From: Sipunculus nudus
Lineage: Eukaryota > Annelida > Sipuncula > Golfingiida > Sipunculidae
NCBI GenBank assembly: GCA_026874595.1
Contig: CM049320.1
Location: 39,370,714-39,434,713 of the forward strand
Direction: 5' to 3'
DNA length: 64,000 nucleotides
The position numbers and the translations under genes were made by a program. The notes under the pieces were generated by a model. The model did not search any database. It was given only the letters and a program-made list of their open reading frames with translations, and had not been told where the DNA came from. Positions 27,101-64,000 of the stretch are shown in pieces (position 1 is the stretch's first letter; each line of letters opens with the position of its first letter).

Positions 27101-27301
27101 ATTTACCAGAAGTTCAATGGATTTTGGTAGAACTCATAATGCTCTTTGGAGCACACAAAGGAGTATTCTTTGAAAAAAAAATCTCTTGACATTTAGTAAC
27201 TGCAAACTTCAGATATATATATATATATATATTTATACTGCAAGCACTGGAACCTACTTAGTTCTTTATATATATATAAACCGTGTTGTTTTTCTCCAGA
27301 G

Positions 27302-27348
<47 letters not shown>

Positions 27349-35391: not shown

Positions 35392-35906
35392 ATATCCTAA
35401 TTAATATTTTCTAAGGGTTTATCATTTAATGTAACTTAGATTTCTTTACTGTGAGCATGGCATTGTAAAGAACAGTTTGAATTTTTAGTCTCTCTTTCAC
35501 TCTGAATGTAATCCTTGAAATATATAACTAGTTTTGTATGATTTGTATGAAATCAGAAGTTCATATATTTAATTATGATTTCTTCAAATTGTAAGTTACC
35601 TTATGATGTAATTGAGAGAACATTATCAGAGAAATCTCATAATGCTGCAAAATATTACACAAAAAGATATATTTAGCTTTGTGGCTGCAAAATTGTTACA
35701 AAATGCTGGAACATTTTCCATTAAAAAATCATTATCTTGTTTCAAAATGTGAGATTAAAATATGATGTCACGTTCTACTCTTGTGCCTTATTGTGGGGAG
35801 ATATGAATGTGAACTGTAATAACAGACACATCCCTAACTGTACGTCATAAATACATGGAGGCAATAAATTAACCATGATTAATCGGGAGTTTGTTAATAT
35901 GTTAAA
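35392..35906 (+). other. Short AT-rich spacer before the satellite
   Basis: No ORF, repeat or RNA gene recognised. The satellite begins abruptly at TGAGGATTTGTGG (35907). Confidence 0.5.
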
Positions 35907-36150
35907 TGAGGATTTGTGGTGTGAATGGTCAGGTCTGTGACCCATGAGGATTTGTGGTGTTAATGTTTAGTGATATTTCTGACCTGTGAGGATCTATGGT
36001 GCAAATGTTTAGTGTTATTTCTGACCAGTAAGGATTTGTGGTGTGAATGATTAGTATTGTTTCTGACCTGTGAGGATTTGTTGTGTAAACGTTTAGTGTT
36101 ATTTCTGACTTGTGAGAATTTGTGGTGTGACTGGTGAGTGTTATTTCTGA
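35907..36150 (+). repeat. Decayed left edge of the satellite
   Basis: First five or six units carry many private changes (GGTGCAAATGTTTAGTG, TTGTTGTGTAAACGTTTAG) and CCAGTAAGG. Units become near-consensus after about 36150. Edge decay is expected where homogenisation by unequal exchange fades. Confidence 0.85.
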
Positions 36151-38552
36151 CCTGTGAGGATTTGTGGTGTGAATGGTCAGGGTTATTTCTGTGATCTATG
36201 AGGATTTGTAGTGTGAATGGTCAGGGTTATTTATGACCTATGAGGATTTGTGGTGTGAATGGTCAGGGTTATTTCTGTGACCTATGAGGATCTGTGCTGT
36301 GAACAGTCATGGATATTCCTGTGACCTATGTGGATTTTTGGTGTGAACGGTCAGGGTTATTTCTGTGACCTATGAGGATTTGTAGTGTGAATGGTCAGGG
36401 TTATTTCTGTGACCTATGAGAATTTGTAGTGTGAATGGTCAGGGTTATTTCTGTGACCTATGAGGATTTGTGGTGTGAATGGTCAGGGTTATTTCTGTGA
36501 CCTATGAGGATTTGTGGTGTGAATGGTCAGGGTTATTTCTGTGACCTATGAGGATTTGTGATGTGAATGGTCAGGGTTATTTCTGTGACCTATGAGGATT
36601 TGTGGTGTGAATGGTCAGGTTTATTTCTGACCTGTGAGGATTTGCAGTGTGAATGGTCAGGGTTATTTCTGACCTGTAAGGATTTGTGGTGTGAATGGTC
36701 AGAGTTATTTCTGTGACCTATGAGGATTTGTGGTGTGAATGGTCATGGATATTTCTGTGACCTATGTGGATTTGTGGTGTGAATGGTCAGGGTTATTTCT
36801 GTGACCTTTGAGGATTTGTGGTGTGAATGGTCAGGGTTATTTCTGTGACCAATGAGGATTTGTGGTGTGAATGGTCAGGGTTATTTCTGACCTGTAAGGA
36901 TTTGTGGTGTGAATGGTCAGGGTTATTTCTGACCTGTAAGGATTTGTGGTGTGAATGGTCAGGGTTATTTCTGTGACCTATGAGGATCTGTGGTGTGAAC
37001 AGTTATGGATATTTCTGTGACCTATGTGGATTTGTGGTGTGAATGGTCAGGGTTATTTCTGTGACCTGTGAGGATTTGTGGTGTGAATGGTCAGGGTTTT
37101 TTCTGTGACCTATGAGGATTTGTGGTGTGAATGGTCAGGGTTATTTCTGTGACCTATGAGGATTTGTGATGTGAATGGTCAGGGTTATTTCTGTGACCTA
37201 TGAGGATTTGTGGTGTGAATGGTCAGGTTTATTTCTGACCTGTGAGGATTTGCGGTGTGAATGGTCAGGGTTATTTCTGACCTGTAAGGATTTGTGGTGT
37301 GAATGGTCAGGGTTATTTCTGTGACCTATGAGGATTTGTGGTGTGAATGGTCAGGGTTATTTCTGTGACCTATGAGGATTTGTAGTGTGAATGGTCAGGG
37401 TTATTTATGACCTATGAGGATTTGTGGTGTGAATGGTCAGGGTTATTTCTGTGACCTATGAGGATCTGTGCTGTGAACAGTCATGGATATTTCTGTGACC
37501 TATGTGGATTTTTGGTGTGAACGGTCAGGGTTATTTCTGTGACCTATGAGGATTTGTAGTGTGAATGGTCAGGGTTATGTCTGTGACCTATGAGGATTTG
37601 TAGTGTGAATGGTCAGGGTTATTACTGTGACCTATGAGGATTTGTGGTGTGAATGGTCAGGGTTATTTCTGTGACCTATCAGGATTTGTGGTGTGAATGG
37701 TCAGGGTTATTACTGTGACCTATGAGGATTTGTGGTGTGAATGGTCAGGGTTATTTCTGTGACCTGTGAGGATTTGTAATGTGAATGGTCAGGGTTATTT
37801 CTGTGACCTATGAGAATTTGTGAATTGAATGGCCAGGGTTATTACTGTGACCTATGAGGATTTGTGGTGTGAATGGTCAGGGTTATTTCTGTGACCTGTG
37901 AGGATTTGTAGTGTGAATGGTCAGGGTTATTTCTGTGACCTATGAGGATTTGTGGTGTGAATGGTCAGGGTTATTTCTGACCTGTGAGGATTTGTAGTGT
38001 GAATGGTCAGGGTTATTTCTGTGACCTATGAGAATTTGTGGTGTGAATGGTCAGGGTTATTTCTGTGACCTATGAGGATCTGTGGTGTGAACAGTCATGG
38101 ATATTTCTGTGACCTATGAGGATTTGTGGTGTGAATGGTCAGGGTTATTTCTGTGACCTATTATGGTTTGAGGTTTGAATGGTCAGGGTTATTTCTGACC
38201 TTTGAGGATTTGTGGTGTGAATGGTCAGGGTTATCTCTGACCTGTTAGGATTTGTGGTGTGAATGATCAGGGTTATTTCTGTGACCTATTATGGTTTGTG
38301 GTGTGAATGGTCAGGGTTATTTCTGACCTGTGAGGATTTGTGGTGTGAATAGTCAGGGTTATTTCTGTGACCTATGAGGATTTGTGATGTGAATGGTAGG
38401 GGTTATTTCTGTGACCAATGAGGATTTGTGGTGTGAATGGTCAGGGTTATTTCTGTGACCTATGAGGATTTGTAGTGTGAATGGTCAGGGTTATTTATGA
38501 CCTATGAGGATTTGTGGTGTGAATGGTCAGGGTTATTTCTGTGACCTATGAG

Positions 38553-40468
38553 GATCTGTGCTGTGAACAGTCATGGATATTTCTGTGACCTATGTGGATT
38601 TTTGGTGTGAACGGTCAGGGTTATTTCTGTGACCTATGAGGATTTGTAGTGTGAATGGTCAGGGTTATTTCTGTGACCTATGAGAATTTGTGGTGTGAAT
38701 GGTCAGGGTTATTTCTGTGAACTATGAGAATTTGTGGTGTGAATGGTCGGGGTTATTTCTGTGACCTATGAGGATTTGTGATGTGAATGGTCAGGGTTAT
38801 TTCTGTGACCTATGAGGATTTGTGGTGTGAATGGTCAGGTTTATTTCTGACCTGTGAGGATTTGCGGTGTGAATGGTCAGGGTTATTTCTGACCTGTAAG
38901 GATTTGTGGTGTGAATGGTCAGGGTTATTTCTGTGACCTATGCCGATTTGTGGTGTGAATGGTCAGGGTTATTTCTGTGATCTATGAGGATTTGTAGTGT
39001 GAATGGTCAGGGTTATTTATGACCTATGAGGATTTGTGGTGTGAATGGTCAGGGTTATTTCTGTGACCTATGAGGATCTGTGCTGTGAACAGTCATGGAT
39101 ATTTCTGTGACCTATGTGGATTTTTGGTGTGAACGGTCAGGGTTATTTCTGTGACCTATGAGGATTTGTAGTGTGAATGGTCAGGGTTATTTCTGTGACC
39201 TATGAGAATTTGTAGTGTGAATGGTCAGGGTTATTTCTGTGACCTATGAGGATTTGTGGTGTGAATGGTCAGGGTTATTTCTGTGACCTATGAGGATTTG
39301 TGGTGTGAATGGTCAGGGTTATTTCTGTGAACTATGAGAATTTGTGGTGTGAATGGTCAGGGTTATTTCTGTGACCTATGAGGATTTGTGATGTGAATGG
39401 TCATGGTTATTTCTGTGACCTATGAGGATTTGTGGTGTGAATGGTCAGGTTTATTTCTGACCTGTGAGGATTTGCGGTGTGAATGGTCAGGGTTATTTCT
39501 GACCTGTAAGGATTTGTGGTGTGAATGGTCAGGGTTATTTCTGTGACCTATGAGGATTTGTGGTGTGAATGGTCATGGATATTTCTGTGACCTATGTGGA
39601 TTTGTGGTGTGAATGGTCAGGGTTATTTCTGTGACCTATGAGGATTTGTGGTGTGAATGGTCAGGGTTATTTCTGTGACCTATGAAGATTTGTAGTGTGA
39701 ATGGTCAGGGTTATTACTGTGACCTATGAGGATTTGTGGTGTGAATGGTCAGGGTTATTTCTGTGACCTATGAGGATTTGTGGTGTGAATGGTCAGGGTT
39801 ATTAATGTGACCTATGAGGATTTGTGGTGTGAATGGTCAGGGTTATTTCTGTGACCTGTGAGGATTTGTAGTGTGAATGGTCAGGGTTATTTCTGTGACC
39901 TATGAGGATTTGTGGTGTGAATGGTCAGGGTTATTTCTGACCTGTGAGGATTTGTAGTGTGAATGGTCAGGGTTATTTCTGTGACCTATGAGGATCTGTG
40001 GTGTGAACAGTCATGGATATTTCTGTGACCTATGAGGATTTGTGGTGTGAATGGTCAGGGTTATTTCTGTGACCTATTATGGTTTGAGGTTTGAATGGTC
40101 AGGGTTATTTCTGACCTTTGAGGATTTGTGGTGTGAATGGTCAGGGTTATCTCTGACCTGTTAGGATTTGTGGTGTGAATGATCAGGGTTATTTCTGTGA
40201 CCTATTATGGTTTGTGGTGTGAATGGTCAGGGTTATTTCTGACCTGTGAGGATTTGTGGTGTGAATAGTCAGGGTTATTTCTGTGACCTATGAGGATTTG
40301 TGATGTGAATGGTAGGGGTTATTTCTGTGACCAATGAGGATTTGTGGTGTGAATGGTCAGGGTTATTTCTGTGACCTATGAGGATTTGTAGTGTGAATGG
40401 TCAGGGTTATTTATGACCTATGAGGATTTGTGGTGTGAATGGTCAGGGTTATTTCTGTGACCTATGAG
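38553..40468 (+). repeat. Long-range satellite block, copy 1 (522 + 1394 bp modules)
   Basis: Markers at 38553, 39075 and 40469. Contains the rare variants GAACTATGAGAATTTG, GAAGATTTGTAG and TTATTAATGTGACC in the same order as 50871-52874. Confidence 0.85.
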
Positions 40469-43400
40469 GATCTGTGCTGTGAACAGTCATGGATATTTCT
40501 GTGACCTATGTGGATTTTTGGTGTGAACGGTCAGGGTTATTTCTGTGACCTATGAGGATTTGTAGTGTGAATGGTCAGGGTTATTTCTGTGACCTATGAG
40601 AATTTGTAGTGTGAATGGTCAGGGTTATTTCTGTGACCTATGAGGATTTGTGGTGTGAATGGTCAGGGTTATTTCTGTGACCTATGAGGATTTGGAATGT
40701 GAATGGTCAGGGTTATTTCTGTGACCTATGAAAATTTGTGGTGTGAATGGTCAGGGTTATTTCTGTGACCTATGAGGATTTGTGGTGTGAATGGTCAGGG
40801 TTATTTCTGTGACCTATGAGGATTTGTGGTGTGAATGGTCAGGTTTATTTCTGACCTGTGAGGATTTGCGGTGTGAATGGTCAGGGTTATTTCTGACCTG
40901 TAAGGATTAGTGGTGTGAATGGTCAGGGTAATTTCTGTGACCTATGAGGATTTGTGGTGTGAATGGTTAGGGTTATTTCTGTGATCTATGAGGATTTGTA
41001 GTGTGAATGGTCAGGGTTATTTATGACCTATGAGGATTTGTGGTGTGAATGGTCAGGGTTATTTCTGTGACCTATGAGGATCTGTGCTGTGAACAGTCAT
41101 GGATATTTCTGTGACCTATGTGGATTTTTGGTGTGAACGGTCAGGGTTATTTCTGTGACCTATGAGGATTTGTAGTGTGAATGGTCAGGGTTATTTCTGT
41201 GACCTATGAGAATTTGTAGTGTGAATGGTCAGGGTTATTTCTGTGACCTATGAGGATTTGTGGTGTGAATGGTCAGGGTTATTTCTGTGACCTATGAGGA
41301 TTTGTGGTGTGAATGGTCAGGGTTATTTCTGTGACCTATGAGGATTTGTGATGTGAATGGTCAGGGTTATTTCTGTGACCTATGAGGATTTGTGGTGTGA
41401 ATGGTCAGGTTTATTTCTGACCTGTGAGGATTTGCAGTGTGAATGGTCAGGGTTATTTCTGACCTGTAAGGATTTGTGGTGTGAATGGTCAGGGTTATTT
41501 CTGTGACCTATGAGGATTTGTGGTGTGAATGGTCATGGATATTTCTGTGACCTATGTGGATTTGTGGTGTGAATGGTCAGGGTTATTTCTGTGACCTTTG
41601 AGGATTTGTGGTGTGAATGGTCAGGGTTATTTCTGTGACCAATGAGGATTTGTGGTGTGAATGGTCAGGGTTATTTCTGACCTGTAAGGATTTGTGGTGT
41701 GAATGGTCGGGATTATTTCTGACCTGTAAGGATTTGTGGTGTGAATGGTCAGGGTTATTTCTGTGACCTATGAGGATCTGTGGTGTGAACAGTTATGGAT
41801 ATTTCTGTGACCTATGTGGATTTGTGGTGTGAATGGTCAGGGTTATTTCTGTGACCTGTGAGGATTTGTGGTGTGAATGGTCAGGGTTATTTCTGTGACC
41901 TATGAGGATTTGTGATGTGAATGGTCAGGGTTATTTCTGTGACCTATGAGGATTTGTGGTGTGAATGGTCAGGTTTATTTCTGACCTGTGAGGATTTGCG
42001 GTGTGAATGGTCAGGGTTATTTCTGACCTGTAAGGATTTGTGGTGTGAATGGTCAGGGTTATTTCTGTGACCTATGAGGATTTGTGGTGTGAATGGTCAG
42101 GGTTATTTCTGTGATCTATGAGGATTTGTAGTGTGAATGGTCAGGGTTATTTATGACCTATGAGGATTTGTGGTGTGAATGGTCAGGGTTATTTCTGTGA
42201 CCTATGAGGATCTGTGCTGTGAACAGTCATGGATATTTCTGTGACCTATGTGGATTTTTGGTGTGAACGGTCAGGGTTATTTCTGTGACCTATGAGGATT
42301 TGTAGTGTGAATGGTCAGGGTTATGTCTGTGACCTATGAGGATTTGTAGTGTGAATGGTCAGGGTTATTACTGTGACCTATGAGGATTTGTGGTGTGAAT
42401 GGTCAGGGTTATTTCTGTGACCTATGAGGATTTGTGGTGTGAATGGTCAGGGTTATTACTGTGACCTATGAGGATTTGTGGTGTGAATGGTCAGGGTTAT
42501 TTCTGTGACCTGTGAGGATTTGTAATGTGAATGGTCAGGGTTATTTCTGTGACCTATGAGAATTTGTGGATTGAATGGCCAGGGTTATTACTGTGACCTA
42601 TGAGGATTTGTGGTGTGAATGGTCAGGGTTATTTCTGTGACCTGTGAGGATTTGTAGTGTGAATGGTCAGGGTTATTTCTGTGACCTATGAGGATTTGTG
42701 GTGTGAATGGTCAGGGTTATTTCTGACCTGTGAGGATTTGTAGTGTGAATGGTCAGGGTTATTTCTGTGACCTATGAGAATTTGTGGTGTGAATGGTCAG
42801 GGTTATTTCTGTGACCTATGAGGATCTGTGGTGTGAACAGTCATGGATATTTCTGTGACCTATGAGGATTTGTGGTGTGAATGGTCAGGGTTATTTCTGA
42901 CCTTTGAGGATTTGTGGTGTGAATGGTCAGGGTTATCTCTGACCTGTTAGGATTTGTGGTGTGAATGATCAGGGTTATTTCTGTGACCTATTATGGTTTG
43001 TGGTGTGAATGGTCAGGGTTATTTCTGACCTGTGAGGATTTGTGGTGTGAATAGTCAGGGTTATTTCTGTGACCTATGAGGATTTGTGATGTGAATGGTA
43101 GGGGTTATTTCTGTGACCAATGAGGATTTGTGGTGTGAATGGTCAGGGTTATTTCTGTGACCTATGAGGATTTGTAGTGTGAATGGTCAGGGTTATTTAT
43201 GACCTATGAGGATTTGTGGTTTGAATGGTCAGGGTTATTTCTGTGACCTATGAGGATCTGTGCTGTGAACAGTCATGGATATTTCTGTGACCTATGTGGA
43301 TTTTTGGTGTGAACGGTCAGGGTTATTTCTGTGACCTATGAGGATTTGTAGTGTGAATGGTCAGGGTTATTTCTGTGACCTATGAGAATTTGTAGTGTGA

Positions 43401-44254
43401 ATGGTCAGGGTTATTTCTGTGACCTATGAGGATTTGTGGTGTGAATGGTCAGGGTTATTTCTGTGACCTATGAGAATTTGTGGTGTGAATGGTCAGGGTT
43501 ATTTCTGTGACCTATGAGGATTTGTGATGTGAATGGTCAGGGTTATTTCTGTGACCTATGAGGATTTGTGGTGTGAATGGTCAGGTTTATTTCTGACCTG
43601 TAAGGATTTGTGGTGTGAATGGTCAGGGTTATTTCTGTGACCTGTGAGGATTTGTAATGTGAATGGTCAGGGTTATTTCTGTGACCTATGAGAATTTGTG
43701 GATTGAATGGCCAGGGTTATTACTGTGACCTATGAGGATTTGTGGTGTGAATGGTCAGGGTTATTTCTGTGACCTGTGAGGATTTGCGGTGTGAATGGTC
43801 AGGGTTATTTCTGACCTGTAAGGATTTGTGGTGTGAATGGTCAGGGTTATTTCTGTGACCTATTATGGTTTGAGGTTTGAATGGTCAGGGTTATTTCTGA
43901 CCTTTGAGGATTTGTGGTGTGAATGGTCAGGGTTATCTCTGACCTGTTAGGATTTGTGGTGTGAATGATCAGGGTTATTTCTGTGACCTATTATGGTTTG
44001 TGGTGTGAATGGTCAGGGTTATTTCTGACCTGTGAGGATTTGTGGTGTGAATAGTCAGGGTTATTTCTGTGACCTATGAGGATTTGTGATGTGAATGGTA
44101 GGGGTTATTTCTGTGACCAATGAGGATTTGTGGTGTGAATGGTCAGGGTTATTTCTGTGACCTATGAGGATTTGTAGTGTGAATGGTCAGGGTTATTTAT
44201 GACCTATGAGGATTTGTGGTGTGAATGGTCAGGGTTATTTCTGTGACCTATGAG
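40469..44254 (+). repeat. Third-order satellite repeat, copy 1 (3786 bp)
   Basis: Bounded by the marker GATCTGTGCTGTGAACAG at 40469, with the same marker at 41079, 42209 and 43255, giving modules of 610, 1130, 1046 and 1000 bp. The same series follows in the next block. Confidence 0.9.
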
Positions 44255-47200
44255 GATCTGTGCTGTGAACAGTCATGGATATTTCTGTGACCTATGTGGA
44301 TTTTTGGTGTGAACGGTCAGGGTTATTTCTGTGACCTATGAGGATTTGTAGTGTGAATGGTCAGGGTTATTTCTGTGACCTATGAGAATTTGTAGTGTGA
44401 ATGGTCAGGGTTATTTCTGTGACCTATGAGGATTTGTGGTGTGAATGGTCAGGGTTATTTCTGTGACCTATGAGGATTTGGAATGTGAATGGTCAGGGTT
44501 ATTTCTGTGACCTATGAGAATTTGTGGTGTGAATGGTCAGGGTTATTTCTGTGACCTATGAGGATTTGTGGTGTGAATGGTCAGGGTTATTTCTGTGACC
44601 TATGAGGATTTGTGGTGTGAATGGTCAGGTTTATTTCTGACCTGTGAGGATTTGCGGTGTGAATGGTCAGGGTTATTTCTGACCTGTATGGATTAGTGGT
44701 GTGAATGGTCAGGGTAATTTCTGTGACCTATGAGGATTTGTGGTGTGAATGGTCAGGGTTATTTCTGACCTGTAAGGATTAGTGGTGTGAATGGTCAGGG
44801 TAATTTCTGTGACCTATGAGGATTTGTGGTGTGAATGGTTAGGGTTATTTCTGTGATCTATGAGGATTTGTAGTGTGAATGGTCAGGGTTATTTATGACC
44901 TATGAGGATTTGTGGTGTGAATGGTCAGGGTTATTTCTGTGACCTATGAGGATCTGTGCTGTGAACAGTCATGGATATTTCTGTGACCTATGTGGATTTT
45001 TGGTGTGAACGGTCAGGGTTATTTCTGTGACCTATGAGGATTTGTAGTGTGAATGGTCAGGGTTATTTCTGTGACCTATGAGAATTTGTAGTGTGAATGG
45101 TCAGGGTTATTTCTGTGACCTATGAGGATTTGTGGTGTGAATGGTCAGGGTTATTTCTGTGACCTATGAGGATTTGTGGTGTGAATGGTCAGGGTTATTT
45201 CTGTGACCTATGAGGATTTGTGATGTGAATGGTCAGGGTTATTTCTGTGACCTATGAGGATTTGTGGTGTGAATGGTCAGGTTTATTTCTGACCTGTGAG
45301 GATTTGCAGTGTGAATGGTCAGGGTTATTTCTGACCTGTAAGGATTTGTGGTGTGAATGGTCAGGGTTATTTCTGTGACCTATGAGGATTTGTGGTGTGA
45401 ATGGTCATGGATATTTCTGTGACCTATGTGGATTTGTGGTGTGAATGGTCAGGGTTATTTCTGTGACCTTTGAGGATTTGTGGTGTGAATGGTCAGGGTT
45501 ATTTCTGTGACCAATGAGGATTTGTGGTGTGAATGGTCAGGGTTATTTCTGACCTGTAAGGATTTGTGGTGTGAATGGTCGGGATTATTTCTGACCTGTA
45601 AGGATTTGTGGTGTGAATGGTCAGGGTTATTTCTGTGACCTATGAGGATCTGTGGTGTGAACAGTTATGGATATTTCTGTGACCTATGTGGATTTGTGGT
45701 GTGAATGGTCAGGGTTATTTCTGTGACCTGTGAGGATTTGTGGTGTGAATGGTCAGGGTTATTTCTGTGACCTATGAGGATTTGTGATGTGAATGGTCAG
45801 GGTTATTTCTGTGACCTATGAGGATTTGTGGTGTGAATGGTCAGGTTTATTTCTGACCTGTGAGGATTTGCGGTGTGAATGGTCAGGGTTATTTCTGACC
45901 TGTAAGGATTTGTGGTGTGAATGGTCAGGGTTATTTCTGTGACCTATGAGGATTTGTGGTGTGAATGGTCAGGGTTATTTCTGTGATCTATGAGGATTTG
46001 TAGTGTGAATGGTCAGGGTTATTTATGACCTATGAGGATTTGTGGTGTGAATGGTCAGGGTTATTTCTGTGACCTATGAGGATCTGTGCTGTGAACAGTC
46101 ATGGATATTTCTGTGACCTATGTGGATTTTTGGTGTGAACGGTCAGGGTTATTTCTGTGACCTATGAGGATTTGTAGTGTGAATGGTCAGGGTTATGTCT
46201 GTGACCTATGAGGATTTGTAGTGTGAATGGTCAGGGTTATTACTGTGACCTATGAGGATTTGTGGTGTGAATGGTCAGGGTTATTTCTGTGACCTATGAG
46301 GATTTGTGGTGTGAATGGTCAGGGTTATTACTGTGACCTATGAGGATTTGTGGTGTGAATGGTCAGGGTTATTTCTGTGACCTGTGAGGATTTGTAATGT
46401 GAATGGTCAGGGTTATTTCTGTGACCTATGAGAATTTGTGGATTGAATGGCCAGGGTTATTACTGTGACCTATGAGGATTTGTGGTGTGAATGGTCAGGG
46501 TTATTTCTGTGACCTGTGAGGATTTGTAGTGTGAATGGTCAGGGTTATTTCTGTGACCTATGAGGATTTGTGGTGTGAATGGTCAGGGTTATTTCTGACC
46601 TGTGAGGATTTGTAGTGTGAATGGTCAGGGTTATTTCTGTGACCTATGAGAATTTGTGGTGTGAATGGTCAGGGTTATTTCTGTGACCTATGAGGATCTG
46701 TGGTGTGAACAGTCATGGATATTTCTGTGACCTATGAGGATTTGTGGTGTGAATGGTCAGGGTTATTTCTGACCTTTGAGGATTTGTGGTGTGAATGGTC
46801 AGGGTTATCTCTGACCTGTTAGGATTTGTGGTGTGAATGATCAGGGTTATTTCTGTGACCTATTATGGTTTGTGGTGTGAATGGTCAGGGTTATTTCTGA
46901 CCTGTGAGGATTTGTGGTGTGAATAGTCAGGGTTATTTCTGTGACCTATGAGGATTTGTGATGTGAATGGTAGGGGTTATTTCTGTGACCAATGAGGATT
47001 TGTGGTGTGAATGGTCAGGGTTATTTCTGTGACCTATGAGGATTTGTAGTGTGAATGGTCAGGGTTATTTATGACCTATGAGGATTTGTGGTTTGAATGG
47101 TCAGGGTTATTTCTGTGACCTATGAGGATCTGTGCTGTGAACAGTCATGGATATTTCTGTGACCTATGTGGATTTTTGGTGTGAACGGTCAGGGTTATTT

Positions 47201-48126
47201 CTGTGACCTATGAGGATTTGTAGTGTGAATGGTCAGGGTTATTTCTGTGACCTATGAGAATTTGTAGTGTGAATGGTCAGGGTTATTTCTGTGACCTATG
47301 AGGATTTGTGGTGTGAATGGTCAGGGTTATTTCTGTGACCTATGAGAATTTGTGGTGTGAATGGTCAGGGTTATTTCTGTGACCTATGAGGATTTGTGAT
47401 GTGAATGGTCAGGGTTATTTCTGTGACCTATGAGGATTTGTGGTGTGAATGGTCAGGTTTATTTCTGACCTGTAAGGATTTGTGGTGTGAATGGTCAGGG
47501 TTATTTCTGTGACCTGTGAGGATTTGTAATGTGAATGGTCAGGGTTATTTCTGTGACCTATGAGAATTTGTGGATTGAATGGCCAGGGTTATTACTGTGA
47601 CCTATGAGGATTTGTGGTGTGAATGGTCAGGGTTATTTCTGTGACCTGTGAGGATTTGCGGTGTGAATGGTCAGGGTTATTTCTGACCTGTAAGGATTTG
47701 TGGTGTGAATGGTCAGGGTTATTTCTGAGACCTATTATGGTTTGAGGTTTGAATGGTCAGGGTTATTTCTGACCTTTGAGGATTTGTGGTGTGAATGGTC
47801 AGGGTTATCTCTGACCTGTTAGGATTTGCGGTGTGAATGATCAGGGTTATTTCTGTGACCTATTATGGTTTGTGGTGTGAATGGTCAGGGTTATTTCTGA
47901 CCTGTGAGGATTTGTGGTGTGAATAGTCAGGGTTATTTCTGTGACCTATGAGGATTTGTGATGTGAATGGTAGGGGTTATTTCTGTGACCAATGAGGATT
48001 TGTGGTGTGAATGGTCAGGGTTATTTCTGTGACCTATGAGGATTTGTAGTGTGAATGGTCAGGGTTATTTATGACCTATGAGGATTTGTGGTGTGAATGG
48101 TCAGGGTTATTTCTGTGACCTATGAG
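44255..48126 (+). repeat. Third-order satellite repeat, copy 2 (3872 bp)
   Basis: Markers at 44255, 44951, 46081 and 47127 give modules of 696, 1130, 1046 and 1000 bp. The first module is 86 bp (44+42) longer than in copy 1 through a local duplication of the units with GGATTAGTGG and GGGTAATTTC near 44690-44810. Confidence 0.9.
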
Positions 48127-52874: not shown

Positions 52875-55800
52875 GATCTGTGCTGTGAACAGTCATGGAT
52901 ATTTCTGTGACCTATGTGGATTTTTGGTGTGAACGGTCAGGGTTATTTCTGTGACCTATGAGGATTTGTAGTGTGAATGGTCAGGGTTATTTCTGTGACC
53001 TATGAGAATTTGTAGTGTGAATGGTCAGGGTTATTTCTGTGACCTATGAGGATTTGTGGTGTGAATGGTCAGGGTTATTTCTGTGACCTATGAGGATTTG
53101 GAATGTGAATGGTCAGGGTTATTTCTGTGACCTATGAGAATTTGTGGTGTGAATGGTCAGGGTTATTTCTGTGACCTATGAGGATTTGTGGTGTGAATGG
53201 TCAGGGTTATTTCTGTGACCTATGAGGATTTGTGGTGTGAATGGTCAGGTTTATTTCTGACCTGTGAGGATTTGCGGTGTGAATGGTCAGGGTTATTTCT
53301 GACCTGTAAGGATTTGTGGTGTGAATGGTCAGGGTTATTTCTGTGACCTATGACGATTTGTGGTGTGAATGGTCAGGGTTATTTCTGTGATCTATGAGGA
53401 TTTGTAGTGTGAATGGTCAGGGTTATTTATGACCTATGAGGATTTGTGGTGTGAATGGTCAGGGTTATTTCTGTGACCTATGAGGATCTGTGCTGTGAAC
53501 AGTAATGGATATTTCTGTGACCTATGTGGATTTTTGGTGTGAACGGTCGGGGTTATTTCTGTGACCTATGAAGATTTGTAGTGTGAATGGTCAGGGTTAT
53601 TTCTGTGACCTATGAGAATTTGTAGTGTGAATGGTCAGGGTTATTTCTGTGACCTATGAGGATTTGTGGTGTGAATGGTCAGGGTTATTTCTGTGACCTA
53701 TGAGGATTTGTGGTGTGAATGGTCAGGGTTATTTCTGTGAACTATGAGAATTTGTGGTGTGAATGGTCAGGGTTATTTCTGTGACCTATGAGGATTTGTG
53801 ATGTGAATGGTCAGGGTTATTTCTGTGACCTATGAGGATTTGTGGTGTGAATGGTCAGGTTTATTTCTGACCTGTGAGGATTTGCGGTGTGAATGGTCAG
53901 GGTTATTTCTGATCTGTAAGGATTTGTGGTGTGAATGGTCAGGGTTATTTCTGTGACCTATGAGGATTTGTGGTGTGAATGGTCATGGATATTTCTGTGA
54001 CCTATGTGGATTTGTAGTGTGAATGGTCAGGGTTATTTCTGTGACCTATGAGAATTTGTGGTGTGAATGGTCAGGGTTATTTCTGTGACCTATGAGGATC
54101 TGTGGTGTGAACAGTCATGGATATTTCTGTGACCTATGAGGATTGTGGTGTGAATGGTCAGGGTTATTTCTGTGACCTATTATGGTTTGAGGTTTGAATG
54201 GTCAGGGTTATTTCTGACCTTTGAGGATTTGTGGTGTGAATGGTCAGGGTTATCTCTGACCTGTTAGGATTTGTGGTGTGAATGATCAGGGTTATTTCTG
54301 TGACCTATTATGGTTTGTGGTGTGAATGGTCAGGGCTATTTCTGACCTGTGAGGATTTGTGGTGTGAATAGTCAGGGTTATTTCTGTGACCTATGAGGAT
54401 TTGTGATGTGAATGGTAGGGGTTATTTCTGTGACCAATGAGGATTTGTGGTGTGAATGGTCAGGGTTATTTCTGTGACCTATGAGGATTTGTAGTGTGAA
54501 TGGTCAGGGTTATTTATGACCTATGAGGATTTGTGGTGTGAATGGTCAGGGTTATTTCTGTGACCTATGAGGATCTGTGCTGTGAACAGTGATGGATATT
54601 TCTGTGACCTATGTGGATTTTTGGTGTGAACGGTCAGGGTTATTTCTGTGACCTATGAGGATTTGTAGTGTGAATGGTCAGGGTTATTTCTGTGACCTAT
54701 GAGAATTTGTAGTGTGAATGGTCAGGGTTATTTCTGTGACCTATGAGGACTTGTGGTGTGAATGGTCAGGGTTATTTCTGTGACCTATGAGGATTTGTGG
54801 TGTGAATGGTCAGGGTTATTTCTGTGACCTATGAGAATTTGTGGTGTGAATGGTCAGGGTTATTTCTGTGACCTATGAGGATTTGTGATGTGAATGGTCA
54901 GGGTTATTTCTGTGACCTATGAGGATTTGTGGTGTGAATGGTCAGGTTTATTTCTGACCTGTGAGGATTTGCGGTGTGAATGGTCAGGGTTATTTCTGAC
55001 CTGTAAGGATTTGTGGTGTGAATGGTCAGGGTTATTTCTGTGACCTATGACGATTTGTGGTGTGAATGGTCAGGGTTATTTCTGTGATCTATGAGGATTT
55101 GTAATGTGAATGGTCAGGGTTATTTATGACCTATGAGGATTTGTGGTGTGAATGGTCAGGGTTATTTCTGTGACCTATGAGGATCTGTGCTGTGAACAGC
55201 CATGGATATTTCTGTGACCTATGTGGATTTTGGGTGTGAACGGTCAGGGTTATTTCTGTGACCTATGAGGATTTGTAGTGTGAATGGTCAGGGTTATTTC
55301 TGTGACCTATGAGAATTTGTAGTGTGAATGGTCAGGGTTATTTCTGTGACCTATGAGGATTTGTGGTGTGAATGGTCAGGGTTATTTCTGTGAACTATGA
55401 GAATTTGTGGTGTGAATGGTCAGGGTTATTTCTGTGACCTATGAGGATTTGTGATGTGAATGGTCAGGGTTATTTCTGACCTGTGAGGATTTGTAATGTG
55501 AATGGTCAGGGGTATTTCTGACCTGTGAGGATTTGTAGTGTGAATGGTCAGGGTTAATTCTGTGACCTATGAGGATTTGTAGTGTGAATGGTCAGGGTTA
55601 TTTCTGTCCTGTGAGGATTTGTGGTGTGAATGGTCAAGGTTATTTCTGTGATCTATGAGGATTTGTAGTGTGAATGGTCAGGGTTATTTCTGTGACCTAT
55701 GAGGATTTGTAGTGTGAATGGTCAGGGTTATTTCTGTGACCTATGAGGATTTGTAGTGTGAATGGTCAGGGTTATTACTTTTTGACCTATGAGGATTTGT

Positions 55801-57324
55801 GGTGTGAATGGTCAGGGTTATTTCTGTGACCTATGAGGATTTGTGGTGTGAATGGTCAGGGTTATTTCTGTGACCTATGAGGATTTGTAGTGTGAATGGT
55901 CAGGGTTATTTCTGTGACCTATGAGGATTTGTAGTGTGAATGGTCAGGGTTATTACTGTGACCTATGAGGATTTGTGGTGTGAATGGTCAGGGTTATTTC
56001 TGTGACCTATGAGGTTTTGTGGTGTGAATGGTCAGGGTTATTACTGTGACCTATGAGGATTTGTGGTGTGAATGGTCAGGGTTATTTCTGTGACCTGTGA
56101 GGATTTGTAATGTGAATGGTCAGGGTTATTTCTGTGACCTATGAGAATTTGTGGTGTGAATGGTCAGGGTTATTACTGTGACCTATGAGGATTTGTGGTG
56201 TGAATGGTCAGGGTTATTTCTGTGACCTGTGAGGATTTGTAGTGTGAATGGTCAGGGTTATTTCTGTGACCTATGAGGATTTGTGGTGTGAATGGTCAGG
56301 GTTATTTCTGACCTGTGCGGATTTGTAGTGTGAATGGTCAGGGGTATTTCTGACCTGTGAGGATTTATAGTGTGAATGGTCAGGGTTAATTCTGTGACCT
56401 ATGAGGATTTGTGGTGTGAATGGTCAGGGTTATTTCTGTGACCTATGAGGATTTGTGGTGTGAATGGTCAAGGTTATTTCTGTGATCTATGAGGATTTGT
56501 AGTGTGAATGGTCAGGGTTATTTCTGTGACCTATGAGGATTTGTAGTGTGAATGGTCAGGGTTATTTCTGTGACCTATGAGGATTTGTAGTGTGAATGGT
56601 CAGGGTTATTACTTTTTGACCTATGAGGATTTGTGGTGTGAATGGTCAGGGTTATTTATGACCTATGAGGATTTGTGGTGTGAATGGTCAGGGTTATTTC
56701 TGTGACCTATGAGGATCTGTGCTGTGAACAGTCATGGATATTTCTGTGACCTATGTGGATTTTTGGTGTGAACGGTCAGGGTTATTTCTGTGACCTATGA
56801 GGATTTGTAGTGTGAATGGTCAGGGTTATTTCTGTGACCTATGAGAATTTGTAGTGTGAATGGTCAGGGTTATTTCTGTGACCTATGAGGATTTGTGGTG
56901 TGAATGGTCAGGGTTATTTCTGTGACCTATGAGGATTTGGAATGTGAATGGTCAGGGTTATTTCTGTGACCTATGAGAATTTGTGGTGTGAATGGTCAGG
57001 GTTATTTCTGTGACCTATGAGGATTTGTGGTGTGAATGGTCAGGGTTATTTCTGTGACCTATGAGGATTTGTGGTGTGAATGGTCAGGTTTATTTCTGAC
57101 CTGTGAGGATTTGCGGTGTGAATGGTCAGGGTTATTTCTGACCTGTAAGGATTTGTGGTGTGAATGGTCAGGGTTATTTCTGTGACCTATGACGATTTGT
57201 GGTGTGAATGGTCAGGGTTATTTCTGTGATCTATGAGGATTTGTAGTGTGAATGGTCAGGGTTATTTATGACCTATGAGGATTTGTGGTGTGAATGGTCA
57301 GGGTTATTTCTGTGACCTATGAGG

Positions 57325-60300
57325 ATCTGTGCTGTGAACAGTAATGGATATTTCTGTGACCTATGTGGATTTTTGGTGTGAACGGTCGGGGTTATTTCTG
57401 TGACCTATGAAGATTTGTAGTGTGAATGGTCAGGGTTATTTCTGTGACCTATGAGGATTTGGAATGTGAATGGTCAGGGTTATTTCTGTGACCTATGAGA
57501 ATTTGTGGTGTTAATGGTGAGTGTTATTTCTGTGACCTATGAGGATTTGTAGTGTGAATGGTCAGGATTCTTTCTGTCCTGTGAGGATTTGTGGTGTGAA
57601 TGGTCAGTGTTATTTCTGTGACCTATGAGAATTTGTGATGTGAATGGTCAGGGTTATTTCTGTGACCTATGAGGATTTGTGGTGTGAAAGGACAGGGTTA
57701 TTTCTGTGACCTATGAGGATTTGTGGTGTGAATGGTCAGGGTTATTTCTGTGACCTATGAGGATATGTGGTGTGAATGGTCAGGGTTATTTCTGACCTGT
57801 GAGGATTTGTGGTGTGAATGGTCATGGATATTTCTGTGACCTATGTGGATTTGTAGTGTGAATGGTCAGGGTTATTACTTTTTGACCTATGAGGATTTGT
57901 GGTGTGAATGGTCAGGGTTATTTATGACCTATGAGGATTTGTGGTGTGAATGGTCAGGGTTATTTCTGTGACCTATGAGGATTTGTGGTGTGAATGGTCA
58001 TGGATATTTCTGTGACCTATGTGGATTTGTAGTGTGAATGGTCAGGGTTATTTCTGTGACCTATGAGAATTTGTGGTGTGAATGGTCAGGGTTATTTCTG
58101 TGACCTATGAGGATCTGTGGTGTGAACAGTCATGGATATTTCTGTGACCTATGAGGATTAGTGGTGTGAATGGTCAGGGTTATTTCTGTGACCTATGAGG
58201 ATTTGTGGTGTGAATGGTCAGGGTTATTTCTGTGACCTATGAGGATTTGTGGTGTGAATGGTCAGGGTTATTTCTGTGACCTATGAGGATTTGTGGTGTG
58301 AATGGTCAGGGTTATTTCTGTGACCTATGAGGATTTATGGTGTGAAAGGACAGGGTTATTTCTGTGACCTATGAGGATTTGTGGTGTGAATGGTCAGGGT
58401 TATTTCTGTGACCTATGAGGATATATGGTGTGAATGGTCAGGGTTATTTCTGACCTGTGAGGATTTGTGGTGTGAATGGTTAGGGTTATCTCTGACCTGT
58501 GAGGATTTGTGGTGTGAATGGTCAGGGTTATTTCTAACCTTTGAGGATTTGTGGTGTGAATGGTCAGGGTTATTTATGACCTCTGAGGATTTGTGGTGTG
58601 AATGATGAGTGTTATTTCTGTGACCTATGAGGATTTGTGGTGTGAACGGTCAGGATTCTTTCTGTCCTGTGAGGATTTGTGGTGTGAATGGTCAGGGTTA
58701 TTTCTGTGACCTATGAGGATTTGTGGTATAAATGGTCAGGGGTATTTCTGTGACCTATGGGGATTTGTGGTGTGAATGGTCAGGGTTATTTCTGTGACCT
58801 ATGAGAATTTGTAGTGTGAATGGTCAGGGTTATTTCTGTGACCTATGAGGATTTGTGGTGTGAATGGTCAGGGTTATTTCTGTGACCTATGAGGATTTGG
58901 AATGTGAATGGTCAGGGTTATTTCTGTGACCTATGAGAATTTGTGGTGTGAATGGTCAGGGTTATTTCTGTGACCTATGAGGATTTGTGGTGTGAATGGT
59001 CAGGGTTATTTCTGTGACCTATGAGGATTTGTGGTGTGAATGGTCAGGTTTATTTCTGACCTGTGAGGATTTGCGGTGTGAATGGTCAGGGTTATTTCTG
59101 ACCTGTAAGGATTTGTGGTGTGAATGGTCAGGGTTATTTCTGTGACCTATGACGATTTGTGGTGTGAATGGTCAGGGTTATTTCTGTGATCTATGAGGAT
59201 TTGTAGTGTGAATGGTCAGGGTTATTTATGACCTATGAGGATTTGTGGTGTGAATGGTCAGGGTTATTTCTGTGACCTATGAGGATCTGTGCTGTGAACA
59301 GTAATGGATATTTCTGTGACCTATGTGGATTTTTGGTGTGAACGGTCGGGGTTATTTCTGTGACCTATGAAGATTTGTAGTGTGAATGGTCAGGGTTATT
59401 TCTGTGACCTATGAGAATTTGTAGTGTGAATGGTCAGGGTTATTTCTGTGACCTATGAGGATTTGTGGTGTGAATGGTCAGGGTTATTTCTGTGACCTAT
59501 GAGGATTTGTGGTGTGAATGGTCAGGGATATTTCTGTGAACTATGAGAATTTGTGGTGTGAATGGTCAGGGTTATTTCTGTGACCTATGAGGATTTGTGA
59601 TGTGAATGGTCAGGGTTATTTCTGTGACCTATGAGGATTTGTGGTGTGAATGGTCAGGTTTATTTCTGACCTGTGAGGATTTGCGGTGTGAATGGTCAGG
59701 GTTATTTCTGATCTGTAAGGATTTGTGGTGTGAATGGTCAGGGTTATTTCTGTGACCTATGAGGATTTGTGGTGTGAATGGTCATGGATATTTCTGTGAC
59801 CTATGTGGATTTGTAGTGTGAATGGTCAGGGTTATTTCTGTGACCTATGAGAATTTGTGGTGTGAATGGTCAGGGTTATTTCTGTGACCTATGAGGATCT
59901 GTGGTGTGAACAGTCATGGATATTTCTGTGACCTATGAGGATTAGTGGTGTGAATGGTCAGGGTTATTTCTGTGACCTATGAGGATTTGTGGTGTGAATG
60001 GTCAGGGTTATTTCTGTGACCTATGAGGATTTGTGGTGTGAATGGTCAGGGTTATTTCTGTGACCTATGAGGATTTGTGGTGTGAATGGTCAGGGTTATT
60101 TCTAACCTTTGAGTATTTGTGGTGTGAATGATCAGGGTTATTTATGACCTGTGAGGATTTGTGGTGTTAATGGTGAGTGTTATTTCTGTGACCTATGAGG
60201 ATTTGTAGTGTGAATGGTCAGGATTCTTTCTGTCCTGTGAGGATTTGTGGTGTGAATGGTCAGTGTTATTTCTGTGACCTATGAGAATTTGTGGTGTGAA

Positions 60301-63300
60301 TGGTCAGGGTTATTTCTGTGACCTATGAGGATTTATGGTGTGAAAGGACAGGGTTATTTCTGTGACCTATGAGGATTTGTGGTGTGAATGGTCAGGGTTA
60401 TTTCTGTGACCTATGAGGATATATGGTGTGAATGGTCAGGGTTATTTCTGACCTGTGAGGATTTGTGGTGTGAATGGTTAGGGTTATCTCTGACCTGTGA
60501 GGATTTGTGGTGTGAATGGTCAGGGTTATTTCTAACCTTTGAGGATTTGTGGTGTGAATGGTCAGGGTTATTTATGACCTCTGAGGATTTGTGGTGTGAA
60601 TGATGAGTGTTATTTCTGTGACCTATGAGGATTTGTGGTGTGAACGGTCAGGATTCTTTCTGTCCTGTGAGGATTTGTGGTGTGAATGGTCAGGGTTATT
60701 TCTGTGACCTATGAGGATTTGTGGTATAAATGGTCAGGGGTATTTCTGTGACCTATGGGGATTTGTGGTGTGAATGGGCAGGGTTATTTCTGTGACCTAT
60801 GAGGATTAGTGGTGTGAATGGTCAGGGTTATTTCTGTGACCTATGGGGATTTGTGGTGTGAATGGGCAGGGTTATTTCTGTGACCTATGAGGATTAGTGG
60901 TGTGAATGGTCAGGGTTATTTCTGTGACCTATGAGGATTTGTGGTGTGAATGGTCAGGGTTATTTCTGTGACCTATCAGGATTTGTGGTGTGAATGGTCA
61001 GGGTTATTTCTGTGACCTATGAGGATTTGTGGTGTGAATGGTCAGGGTTATTTCTAACCTTTGAGTATTTGTGGTGTGAATGGTCAGGGTTATTTATGAC
61101 CTGTGAGGATTTGTGGTGTTAATGGTGAGTGTTATTTCTGTGACCTATGAGGATTTGTAGTGTGAATGGTCAGGATTCTTTCTGTCCTGTGAGGATTTGT
61201 GGTGTGAATGGTCAGTGTTATTTCTGTGACCTATGAGAATTTGTGATGTGAATGGTCAGGGTTATTTCTGTGACCTATGAGGATTTGTGGTGTGAAAGGA
61301 CAGGGTTATTTCTGTGACCTATGAGGATTTGTGGTGTGAATGGTCAGGGTTATTTCTGTGACCTATGAGGATATGTGGTGTGAATGGTCAGGGTTATTTC
61401 TGACCTGTGAGGATTTGTGGTGTGAATGGTCATGGATATTTCTGTGACCTATGTGGATTTGTAGTGTGAATGGTCAGGGTTATTACTTTTTGACCTATGA
61501 GGATTTGTGGTGTGAATGGTCAGGGTTATTTATGACCTATGAGGATTTGTGGTGTGAATGGTCAGGGTTATTTCTGTGACCTATGAGGATTTGTGGTGTG
61601 AATGGTCATGGATATTTCTGTGACCTATGTGGATTTGTAGTGTGAATGGTCAGGGTTATTTCTGTGACCTATGAGAATTTGTGGTGTGAATGGTCAGGGT
61701 TATTTCTGTGACCTATGAGGATCTGTGGTGTGAACAGTCATGGATATTTCTGTGACCTATGAGGATTAGTGGTGTGAATGGTCAGGGTTATTTCTGTGAC
61801 CTATGAGGATTTGTGGTGTGAATGGTCAGGGTTATTTCTGTGACCTATGAGGATTTGTGGTGTGAATGGTCAGGGTTATTTCTGTGACCTATGAGGATTT
61901 GTGGTGTGAATGGTCAGGGTTATTTCTGTGACCTATGAGGATTTATGGTGTGAAAGGACAGGGTTATTTCTGTGACCTATGAGGATTTGTGGTGTGAATG
62001 GTCAGGGTTATTTCTGTGACCTATGAGGATATATGGTGTGAATGGTCAGGGTTATTTCTGACCTGTGAGGATTTGTGGTGTGAATGGTTAGGGTTATCTC
62101 TGACCTGTGAGGATTTGTGGTGTGAATGGTCAGGGTTATTTCTAACCTTTGAGGATTTGTGGTGTGAATGGTCAGGGTTATTTATGACCTCTGAGGATTT
62201 GTGGTGTGAATGATGAGTGTTATTTCTGTGACCTATGAGGATTTGTGGTGTGAACGGTCAGGATTCTTTCTGTCCTGTGAGGATTTGTGGTGTGAATGGT
62301 CAGGGTTATTTCTGTGACCTATGAGGATTTGTGGTATAAATGGTCAGGGGTATTTCTGTGACCTATGGGGATTTGTGGTGTGAATGGGCAGGGTTATTTC
62401 TGTGACCTATGAGGATTAGTGGTGTGAATGGTCAGGGTTATTTCTGTGACCTATGGGGATTTGTGGTGTGAATGGGCAGGGTTATTTCTGTGACCTATGA
62501 GGATTAGTGGTGTGAATGGTCAGGGTTATTTCTGTGACCTATGAGGATTTGTGGTGTGAATGGTCAGGGTTATTTCTGTGACCTATCAGGATTTGTGGTG
62601 TGAATGGTCAGGGTTATTTCTGTGACCTATGAGGATTTGTGGTGTGAATGGTCAGGGTTATTTCTAACCTTTGAGTATTTGTGGTGTGAATGGTCAGGGT
62701 TATTTATGACCTGTGAGGATTTGTGGTGTTAATGGTGAGTGTTATTTCTGTGACCTATGAGGATTTGTAGTGTGAATGGTCAGGATTCTTTCTGTCCTGT
62801 GAGGATTTGTGGTGTGAATGGTCAGTGTTATTTCTGTGACCTATGAGAATTTGTGATGTGAATGGTCAGGGTTATTTCTGTGACCTATGAGGATTTGTGG
62901 TGTGAAAGGACAGGGTTATTTCTGTGACCTATGAGGATTTGTGGTGTGAATGGTCAGGGTTATTTCTGTGACCTATGAGGATATGTGGTGTGAATGGTCA
63001 GGGTTATTTCTGACCTGTGAGGATTTGTGGTGTGAATGGTTAGGGTTATTTCTAACCTTTGAGGATTTGTAGTGTGAATGGTCATGGATATTTCTGTGAC
63101 CTATGTGGATTTGTAGTGTGAATGGTCAGGGTTATTACTTTTTGACCTATGAGGATTTGTGGTGTGAATGGGCAGGGTTATTTATGACCTATGAGGATTT
63201 GTGGTGTGAATGGTCAGGGTTATTTCTGTGACCTATGAGGATTTGTGGTGTGAATGGTCATGGATATTTCTGTGACCTATGTGGATTTGTAGTGTGAATG

Positions 63301-64000
63301 GTCAGGGTTATTTCTGTGACCTATGAGAATTTGTGGTGTGAATGGTCAGGGTTATTTCTGTGACCTATGAGGATCTGTGGTGTGAACAGTCATGGATATT
63401 TCTGTGACCTATGAGGATTAGTGGTGTGAATGGTCAGGGTTATTTCTGTGACCTATGAGGATTTGTGGTGTGAATGGTCAGGGTTATTTCTGTGACCTAT
63501 GAGGATTTGTGGTGTGAATGGTCAGGGTTATTTCTGTGACCTATGAGGATTTGTGGTGTGAATGGTCAGGGTTATTTCTAACCTTTGAGTATTTGTGGTG
63601 TGAATGATCAGGGTTATTTATGACCTGTGAGGATTTGTGGTGTTAATGGTGAGTGTTATTTCTGTGACCTATGAGGATTTGTAGTGTGAATGGTCAGGAT
63701 TCTTTCTGTCCTGTGAGGATTTGTGGTGTGAATGGTCAGTGTTATTTCTGTGACCTATGAGAATTTGTGGTGTGAATGGTCAGGGTTATTTCTGTGACCT
63801 ATGAGGATTTATGGTGTGAAAGGACAGGGTTATTTCTGTGACCTATGAGGATTTGTGGTGTGAATGGTCAGGGTTATTTCTGTGACCTATGAGGATATAT
63901 GGTGTGAATGGTCAGGGTTATTTCTGACCTGTGAGGATTTGTGGTGTGAATGGTTAGGGTTATCTCTGACCTGTGAGGATTTGTGGTGTGAATGGTCAGG
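57325..64000 (+). repeat. Right-hand satellite domain with distinct higher-order pattern
   Basis: After the marker at 57324 the next is at 59284 and then none to the window end. New variants dominate: GATATATGGTG (58420, 60418, 62028, 63894; spacings 1998, 1610, 1866), GGACAGGG, GGATTCTTTCTGTCCTG, TTTCTAACCTTTGAG. TTACTTTTTGACC, also seen near 55.77 and 56.6 kb, recurs near 57.87, 61.48 and 63.13 kb. Three 216-bp segments (from 58390, 60388, 61998) translate identically. Confidence 0.88.

What the first reader, a model, noticed from the sequence alone, without database searches (positions are those of the whole stretch)
35907..64000. A satellite array of at least 28 kb with nested higher-order structure beside a collagen-modifying gene
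The 44/42-bp unit is repeated about 640 times without foreign insertion, starting 5.9 kb after the PLOD stop codon. Variant units recur at fixed spacings (610, 1000, 1046, 1130, 1394 bp), so the array is organised above the unit level. Such order is best known from alpha-satellite and is less often described for a short-unit minisatellite next to a gene. Function, if any, is unknown; candidates include heterochromatin, a pericentromeric position, or a hypervariable locus.
Basis: partly seen in the sequence, partly recalled or inferred. Interest (0 to 1): 0.75.

Follow-up and report, generated by a model that had tools for sequence, protein, structure and literature searches.

The report
Giant private minisatellite with nested repeats
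A 44-letter DNA phrase is repeated about 955 times over 41.6 kb at one single place in this genome, between two genes, and its layered pattern looks like the ordinary result of repeated block copying; similar arrays turn up elsewhere in the same genome and in human DNA.

Summary
The array runs from 35,906 past the window's end to extended coordinate 77,462: 41,557 bp, 955 units. The quoted spacings recur. There are three levels: units; sub-blocks of 12-32 units (domain 1); blocks of 79-110 units (3.4-4.8 kb). 74% lies in exact repeats of at least 500 bp, the longest 2,986 bp.

'Satellite' is not supported: the 598 (and 866) genome-wide near-matches to the unit all lie in this array, on one strand. 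It sits between convergent genes: PLOD, 5.86 kb left, and a GFO/IDH/MocA-domain gene to the right. It is a giant locus-specific VNTR.

Neighbouring units are less alike than chance. Of 16 simulated settings, function-free block duplication and deletion (mean 60 units) matched all five statistics; events of 1-3 units did not. Such arrays are not rare here: 6 of 140 random pieces lay in tandem arrays, and 3 of those 6 arrays have kb-scale block repeats. Human counterparts are in print (40-bp unit, 52.9 kb, HOR; PMC2588610). Probably no function.

The parts
35906..64000 (+). Part of the 44/42-bp tandem array that lies in the window (646 units start here); it continues 13,462 bp past the window to C15:39,448,175
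   Evidence: TRF; unit segmentation; count; coordinate
35906..36153 (+). Degenerate left edge: the first six units differ from the consensus at 7-11 of 44 positions, against a mean of 2.5 over the array; the first place within 3 mismatches of the consensus starts at 36,154
36328..52913 (+). Domain 1 (units 10-390): 17 sub-blocks of 12-32 units, each opening with the 'G' landmark unit, grouped into blocks of 87-110 units (about 3.8-4.8 kb)
   Evidence: unit map; shifts; spacings
52914..64000 (+). Start of domain 2 (units 391-954; ends outside the window at extended 77,462): mostly other variant types, blocks of 79-96 units near its right end. 27 of 153 unit types are shared with domain 1, but these make up 260 of its 564 units
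40870..43855 (+). First copy of the longest exact internal repeat (2,986 bp; second copy begins at 44,742)
28141..30046 (+). Three coding exons at the 3' end of a PLOD (procollagen lysyl hydroxylase) gene: 28,141-28,287; 29,377-29,499; 29,891-30,046 with TAG stop; AG/GT splice borders
   Evidence: PDB match to LH3, E 6.5e-66; exon borders; Pfam matches exon by exon stayed below their cut-offs
35205..35389 (.). Dispersed repeat fragment in the left flank, 83-89% identical to copies listed on many contigs; the listed matches do not reach into the units
   Evidence: 39 of 3,196 first-look candidates scored

Best explanation
It is a giant, non-coding, single-locus minisatellite (VNTR) in the intergenic space between two convergent genes. 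Shown: one locus, one orientation, 955 units, no insertions, a degenerate left edge, a long-range mosaic of exact block copies. Inferred: a short founding sequence (perhaps a 22-bp dimer) was amplified in place, and the array then grew and turned over by in-register duplication and deletion of blocks of tens of units (about 1-4 kb), through unequal sister-chromatid exchange, synthesis-dependent strand annealing or break-induced replication. Point mutations that arose between block events mark the units, so the nested 'higher-order' pattern is a record of those events. No function is needed; the most likely effect is length variation between individuals.
For: Single locus: 598/598 and 866/866 genome-wide near-matches are in the array, 0 reverse. 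Block copying: 74% of the array in exact repeats >=500 bp and 53% in >=1,000 bp, longest 2,986 bp at offset 3,872; longest identical-unit run 67 vs at most 4 in shuffles and 19 in Markov chains. Adjacent-unit identity 0.018, below the 0.036 expected from unit frequencies. Simulation: block events with mean 60 units and 1.5 mutations per event give medians of 152 unit types, longest run 65.5, coverage 0.70 and best-shift identity 0.139, against 153, 67, 0.748 and 0.159 observed; events of one unit, or of mean 3 units, give adjacent identity 0.59 or 0.38. Non-coding: longest stop-free stretch 88 aa, at the degenerate edge. Block repeats in unrelated arrays of this genome: C9 81-bp (offset 7.87 kb), C8 129-bp (6.42 kb), C11 188-bp (3.39 kb).
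Against: No reads, second haplotype or relatives are held, so length variation and recent activity are not shown. The simulation was tuned by hand: of 16 settings tried (9 x 2 runs; 7 x 20 runs) one covers all five observed values; mean 30 misses on coverage (at most 0.713), mean 100 misses on adjacent identity (at most 0.0136), and mean 60 with 3 mutations per event misses on unit types (182-284), coverage (at most 0.727) and adjacent identity (at most 0.016). It starts from a uniform array and cannot separate sister exchange, SDSA, break-induced replication or rolling-circle reinsertion. Observed adjacent identity (0.018) is inside the range of the fitting setting (0-0.026) but above its median 0.007. 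The last nineteen units differ at only 0-5 positions, so the right edge is much less degenerate than the left. Three of six random arrays gave no kb-scale block repeat (two tested without one, one not tested). A function was not excluded by any experiment.
Confidence: 0.83

Rival explanations
1. The array has a cis function: terminator, insulator or heterochromatin seed between the convergent genes PLOD (+) and the oxidoreductase-domain gene (-), kept by selection.
For: Convergent placement; extreme strand asymmetry (GC skew about +0.54 against a maximum |skew| of 0.29 in 80 random pieces); a weak hairpin GGTCA...TGACC (G-rich strand z -2.07, 7 of 200 shuffles fold as well; other strand z -1.35, 18 of 200); 685 of 740 hairpin cells still pair.
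Against: Only 1 double change among the 740 hairpin cells; 43 of 44 unit positions vary among the 153 distinct units; large arrays with unrelated units occur at other places; PLOD has AATAAA sites from 283 bp after its stop, well before the array; a strand asymmetry follows automatically from repeating one skewed unit.
Confidence: 0.07
2. Chromosome-specific centromeric or pericentromeric satellite with HOR, like alpha satellite.
For: Nested HOR; array private to one chromosome. A human locus-specific VNTR (8q21.2, 12-kb unit, 863 kb) can act as a neocentromere (PMC8099727, passages read).
Against: 41.6 kb only; a gene 5.9 kb to the left and an exon 15.8 kb to the right; no match to the unit at up to 3 mismatches on other contigs; block length varies 79-110 units instead of one regular period. 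Chromatin and cytogenetic position not tested.
Confidence: 0.03
3. Assembly artefact: array length or block copies inflated, or alleles stacked in tandem.
For: Exact copies up to 2,986 bp; reads not available.
Against: The array joins non-array sequence at both ends and the 94 kb examined holds no N; the blocks differ by internal unit deletions and variants and are not whole-block repeats; independent arrays show similar order, though a systematic assembly error could affect them too.
Confidence: 0.05
4. The array was carried in by a transposable element and is one member of a dispersed family.
For: Dispersed repeat fragments lie in both flanks.
Against: No copy of the unit elsewhere at <=3 mismatches, and the listed matches to the flank repeats do not reach into the units; the fragments lie about 500 bp (left) and about 380 bp (right) away from the array edges. 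Only 39 candidates were scored in each flank search (of 3,196 and 5,517).
Confidence: 0.04

Closest known systems
Human locus-specific VNTR arrays >10 kb (Warburton et al. 2008, PMC2588610; passages and Table 1 rows seen)
   Same: Locus-specific, short unit (e.g. 40 bp at 1p36.32, 52,940 bp, marked HOR; 61 bp at Xp22.33, 18.6 kb, irregular HORs of 1.6 and 2.4-2.5 kb in a complex arrangement)
   Different: Unrelated genome and, as far as seen, unrelated sequence; here three nested levels were mapped unit by unit
Mouse single-locus large tandem repeats (PMC3218096; passages seen)
   Same: Arrays >3 kb found once in the reference genome (56 arrays, 29 subfamilies)
   Different: No claim on nested order for them in the passages seen
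Human hypervariable minisatellites such as MSY1 and MS32 (PMC2599865; passages seen)
   Same: Unit 9-100 bp, mosaic of variant units; SDSA proposed as motor
   Different: MSY1 length mutations change 1-3 units and the array has runs of like units; here neighbours are unlike and the inferred events span tens of units
Alpha satellite HORs and 'cascading' HORs (PMC11050224; passages seen)
   Same: Integral multiples of a unit, with unit types recurring inside one HOR copy
Hornerin quartic HOR (39-bp unit; PMC9584774, passages seen)
   Same: Short unit with several nested levels
   Different: Inside a gene, about 1.4-kb top period

Membership tests
Locus-specific VNTR / minisatellite | Head-to-tail unit of about 10-100 bp | tested here: met
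   44/42 bp, one orientation
Locus-specific VNTR / minisatellite | Found at one locus only | tested here: met
   598 of 598 and 866 of 866 matches with up to 3 mismatches inside the array; more diverged copies not searched
Locus-specific VNTR / minisatellite | Copy number varies between individuals | not testable with these tools
   One assembly, no reads
Higher-order repeat array (general) | Integral multi-unit blocks more alike to each other than units within a block | tested here: met
   Identical runs up to 67 units while adjacent units are rarely identical (0.018); 3,786, 3,872 and 4,748 bp spacings of one landmark in domain 1
Alpha-satellite-type centromeric HOR | One regular HOR length | tested here: not met
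   Blocks vary 79-110 units
Alpha-satellite-type centromeric HOR | Family present on several chromosomes | tested here: not met
   No match at up to 3 mismatches outside the C15 array
Alpha-satellite-type centromeric HOR | CENP-A chromatin | not testable with these tools
   No ChIP data
Transposon-borne tandem repeat | Unit linked to an element at several loci | tested here: not met
   Unit at one locus only; flank searches scored only 39 candidates each
Coding (exonic) repeat | Open frame through the array | tested here: not met
   Longest stop-free stretch 88 aa

The most novel reading that the evidence does not exclude
This genome is in a regime in which private minisatellites are repeatedly amplified in kb-sized, in-register blocks, so that several percent of it (6 of 140 random points; 95% interval 1.6-9.1%) consists of local tandem arrays, many with higher-order repeats, and the array beside PLOD is one example. 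If confirmed, HOR would be the default outcome of block-wise recombination in euchromatin and no sign of centromere function.
Probability: 0.35. Interest if true: 0.45.

Novelty: new member of a known kind. Interest (0 to 1): 0.2.

Why it matters
It shows that nested higher-order order, best known from centromeric satellite, is present in a private gene-adjacent minisatellite and, as kb-scale block repeats, in unrelated arrays of the same genome, and that a function-free model of block copying gives similar statistics. It is a clean test locus for measuring how large tandem arrays grow, because non-array sequence bounds it on both sides.

Tried and rejected
Rejected with evidence: slippage of one or about three units as main motor; coding repeat; multi-locus satellite; G3-quadruplex (0 in the array; 552 of 955 units have a four-GG motif, but no composition control was run); a hairpin kept by compensating changes. 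A weak 22+22-bp dimer signal remains (12 of 22, permutation p 0.009). CpG is depleted (92 against 1,281 expected), which may only reflect a founding unit without CpG.

Led nowhere: Pfam scans. Window: only the three plus-strand frames of 20,001-29,902 were scanned, with matches below their cut-offs; the rest of the window, its minus strand and the stretch between PLOD and the array were not. L003: three plus-strand frames gave nothing; the minus strand gave the GFO/IDH/MocA domain. L002: three plus-strand frames from 3,501 and three minus-strand frames of 7,399-10,000 gave only one hit below its cut-off; the first 3.9 kb right of the array was not scanned on the minus strand. Paper searches: unit core as text, 0 papers; single-locus + tandem repeat + array + mollusc + minisatellite, 0 papers; Mya arenaria + tandem repeat + satellite DNA, 2 listings, not read. 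Seventeen chromosome-sized contigs (61-111 Mb) and 36% GC in the sample suggest a mollusc, perhaps a bivalve; that is recalled knowledge, not a test. Single-locus counts for comparators: 43-bp C5 array 54 of 54 and 37-bp neighbour 17 of 17 in one place; for the 81-bp C9 unit, 507 genome-wide hits, of which the listed ones are all on C9 and 151 lie in the fetched stretch; the others were not placed. Of the six random arrays, C14 (about 376 bp) and C1 (71 bp) have no exact repeat of 500 bp or more. The C5 288-bp array itself was not analysed for HOR; the 43-bp array beside it was, and had none.

Full report
What is there. The window is C15:39,370,714-39,434,713 of an unnamed 1.43-Gb assembly. 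TRF reports one array of period 44 from 35,906 to the end of the window. I fetched the next 30 kb; the array ends at extended coordinate 77,462, 13.5 kb beyond the window, so it is 41,557 bp long. A cyclic alignment to the consensus cuts it into 955 units and a 4-base stub: 701 of 44 bp, 241 of 42, 11 of 46, one of 43 and one of 38. There is no foreign insert. There are 153 distinct units, mean identity to the consensus is 94.4%, and the commonest unit occurs 147 times. The first six units differ from the consensus at 7-11 positions; the last nineteen at 0-5.

Higher-order structure. Written as letters, the unit map shows 17 sub-blocks of 12-32 units in domain 1; 12 of the 17 open with the units GBE and 12 of the 17 close with F.I. 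They group into blocks: 26+24+23+16 = 89 units, 26+24+23+14 = 87, and one of 110; domain 2 has blocks of 96 and 79 units near its right end and a less regular stretch before them. The two domains, split near 52.9 kb, share 27 of 153 unit types; those shared types still make up 260 of the 564 units of domain 2, so the split is not clean. 74% of the array lies in exact repeats of at least 500 bp and 53% in those of at least 1,000 bp; the longest is 2,986 bp at offset 3,872. Controls: the longest run of identical units is 67, against at most 4 in 40 shuffles and at most 19 in 40 Markov chains built from neighbour pairs; runs of at least 10 units cover 75%, against 0 and at most 25%.

One locus. 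Two genome-wide pattern searches with up to 3 mismatches gave 598 and 866 forward hits and no reverse hits. The same counts come from the array alone. The unit is therefore private to this place at that threshold; more diverged relatives, and stretches withheld or missing from the assembly, are not excluded. A dispersed repeat lies in each flank; the listed matches do not reach into the units (39 of 3,196 and 39 of 5,517 candidates scored).

Neighbours. Three exons of a PLOD gene on the + strand end with TAG at 30,046; their joined translation matches human LH3 with E 6.5e-66 and the borders are AG/GT. Pfam matches to single exons were below their cut-offs. The array starts 5,859 bp later. To the right, a GFO/IDH/MocA C-terminal domain (E 4.8e-17) lies on the - strand at extended 93,286-93,516, so the two genes point at the array from both sides. 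The stretch between was scanned for genes only in part (see Tried and rejected). A second private minisatellite (37-bp unit, 814 bp) starts about 0.8 kb from the array's right end.

How it most likely works. Adjacent units are identical in 1.8% of cases, below the 3.6% expected from unit frequencies. Slippage of single units makes neighbours alike: in simulations with events of one unit, or of mean three units, median adjacent identity was 0.59 or 0.38 and median coverage by long runs 0 or 0.036 (at most 0.023 and 0.246). With block events of mean 60 units and 1.5 mutations per event, medians were 152 unit types, longest run 65.5, coverage 0.70, adjacent identity 0.007 (range 0-0.026) and best-shift identity 0.139; observed 153, 67, 0.748, 0.018 and 0.159. 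Mean 30 comes close, but its coverage never passed 0.713; mean 100 fails on adjacent identity (at most 0.0136). The nine settings (two runs each), which used more mutations per event for their block sizes, gave too many unit types (307-775, against 153 observed). So the fit was tuned; what it shows is that in-register duplication and deletion of kb blocks, without selection, is sufficient for these statistics and that slippage by few units is not. Which pathway does it (sister exchange, SDSA, break-induced replication) is inferred, not shown. Activity today is not shown either; exact copies of up to 2,986 bp only mean that no substitution separates them in this assembly.

Is it special here? 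The other 136 contigs were not sampled. Six of 140 lay (nearly) wholly inside a tandem array of period 10-500 by TRF, at least 1,100 of 1,200 or 640 of 700 bases (4.3%, exact 95% interval 1.6-9.1%). Extended, they are: C9 81-bp, more than 21.2 kb; C14 about 376-bp, more than 16.5 kb; C8 129-bp, at least 11.7 kb in three adjoining TRF rows; C11 188-bp, at least 7.7 kb; C1 71-bp, 3.6 kb; C5 288-bp, 1.8 kb. kb-scale exact block repeats are present in three of the six: C9 at offset 7.87 kb (84% of the array in exact repeats of at least 500 bp; unit-level analysis), C8 at 6.42 kb (90%; about two copies seen) and C11 at 3.39 kb (48% of the fetched stretch; about two copies seen). C14 and C1 have none; the C5 array was not analysed. 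The C9 unit first matches at 52,688,434 and the fetched stretch ends inside the array at 52,754,982, so that array would be about 66 kb or more if continuous, longer than the one reported here. Nested order and large size are therefore not peculiar to the place beside PLOD.

Compared with print. I saw passages, not whole papers. PMC2588610 lists human locus-specific VNTRs above 10 kb, among them a 40-bp unit over 52,940 bp marked HOR, and describes irregular HORs of 1.6 and 2.5 kb in a 61-bp VNTR. PMC3218096 has a class of single-locus large repeats in mouse. PMC2599865 proposes SDSA for MSY1, and PMC12240836 discusses NAHR, SDSA or gene conversion at repeats and reports that none of 27 TR de novo SVs coincided with recombination breakpoints, which speaks against crossover between homologues as the motor there. 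PMC11050224 and PMC9584774 describe nested HOR in alpha satellite and in the 39-bp hornerin repeat. PMC5874043, on a scallop, names unequal crossing-over or slippage among subrepeats as the source of HOR units. PMC8099727 shows that a human VNTR can host a neocentromere, which keeps a chromatin role conceivable. PMC11049206 places many satellite families in beetle euchromatin. I found no paper with this unit (text search for its core, 0 papers), in a library that lacks most subscription journals.

Verdict. Observation right and understated; label 'satellite' not supported; specialness not supported. New member of a known kind, interest 0.2. The broader pattern, a genome with several percent in local arrays many of which carry block repeats, is the part worth a whole-genome survey.

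Noticed in passing
L002:4256-5069 (extended 78,256-79,069): A second, unrelated minisatellite (37-bp unit, 22 copies) about 0.8 kb right of the array; 17 of 17 genome-wide near-matches are there.
   Followed up: yes
L084+L047+L085 (C9:52,733,783-52,754,982): An 81-bp-unit array of more than 21.2 kb, possibly over 66 kb, with a 97-unit (7.87-kb) higher-order repeat.
   Followed up: partly
L086+L077+L087 (C8:28,846,232-28,867,431): A 129-bp array with a 6.42-kb block repeat and an exact 3,443-bp copy; it runs to the end of the fetched stretch.
   Followed up: partly
window:12091-14067: A tandem array of a 336-bp unit, 5.8 copies, upstream of the PLOD exons identified here.
   Followed up: no
window:5480-6037: A 15-bp array with 61- and 122-bp super-periods, a small example of nested order in the same window.
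   Followed up: no
L003:3321-4043 (extended 87,321-88,043): Four copies of a 180-bp repeat at 96% matches between the array and the oxidoreductase-domain exon.
   Followed up: no
window:35906-64000: AGGGTTA occurs about 0.77 times per unit over the whole array, a heptamer that also occurs in the TTAGGG telomere repeat (recalled); no binding test was made.
   Followed up: partly
window:35906-64000: Unit lengths differ almost only by 2 bp (42, 44, 46; one 43 and one 38), with gaps against the consensus concentrated at unit positions 33-41.
   Followed up: partly
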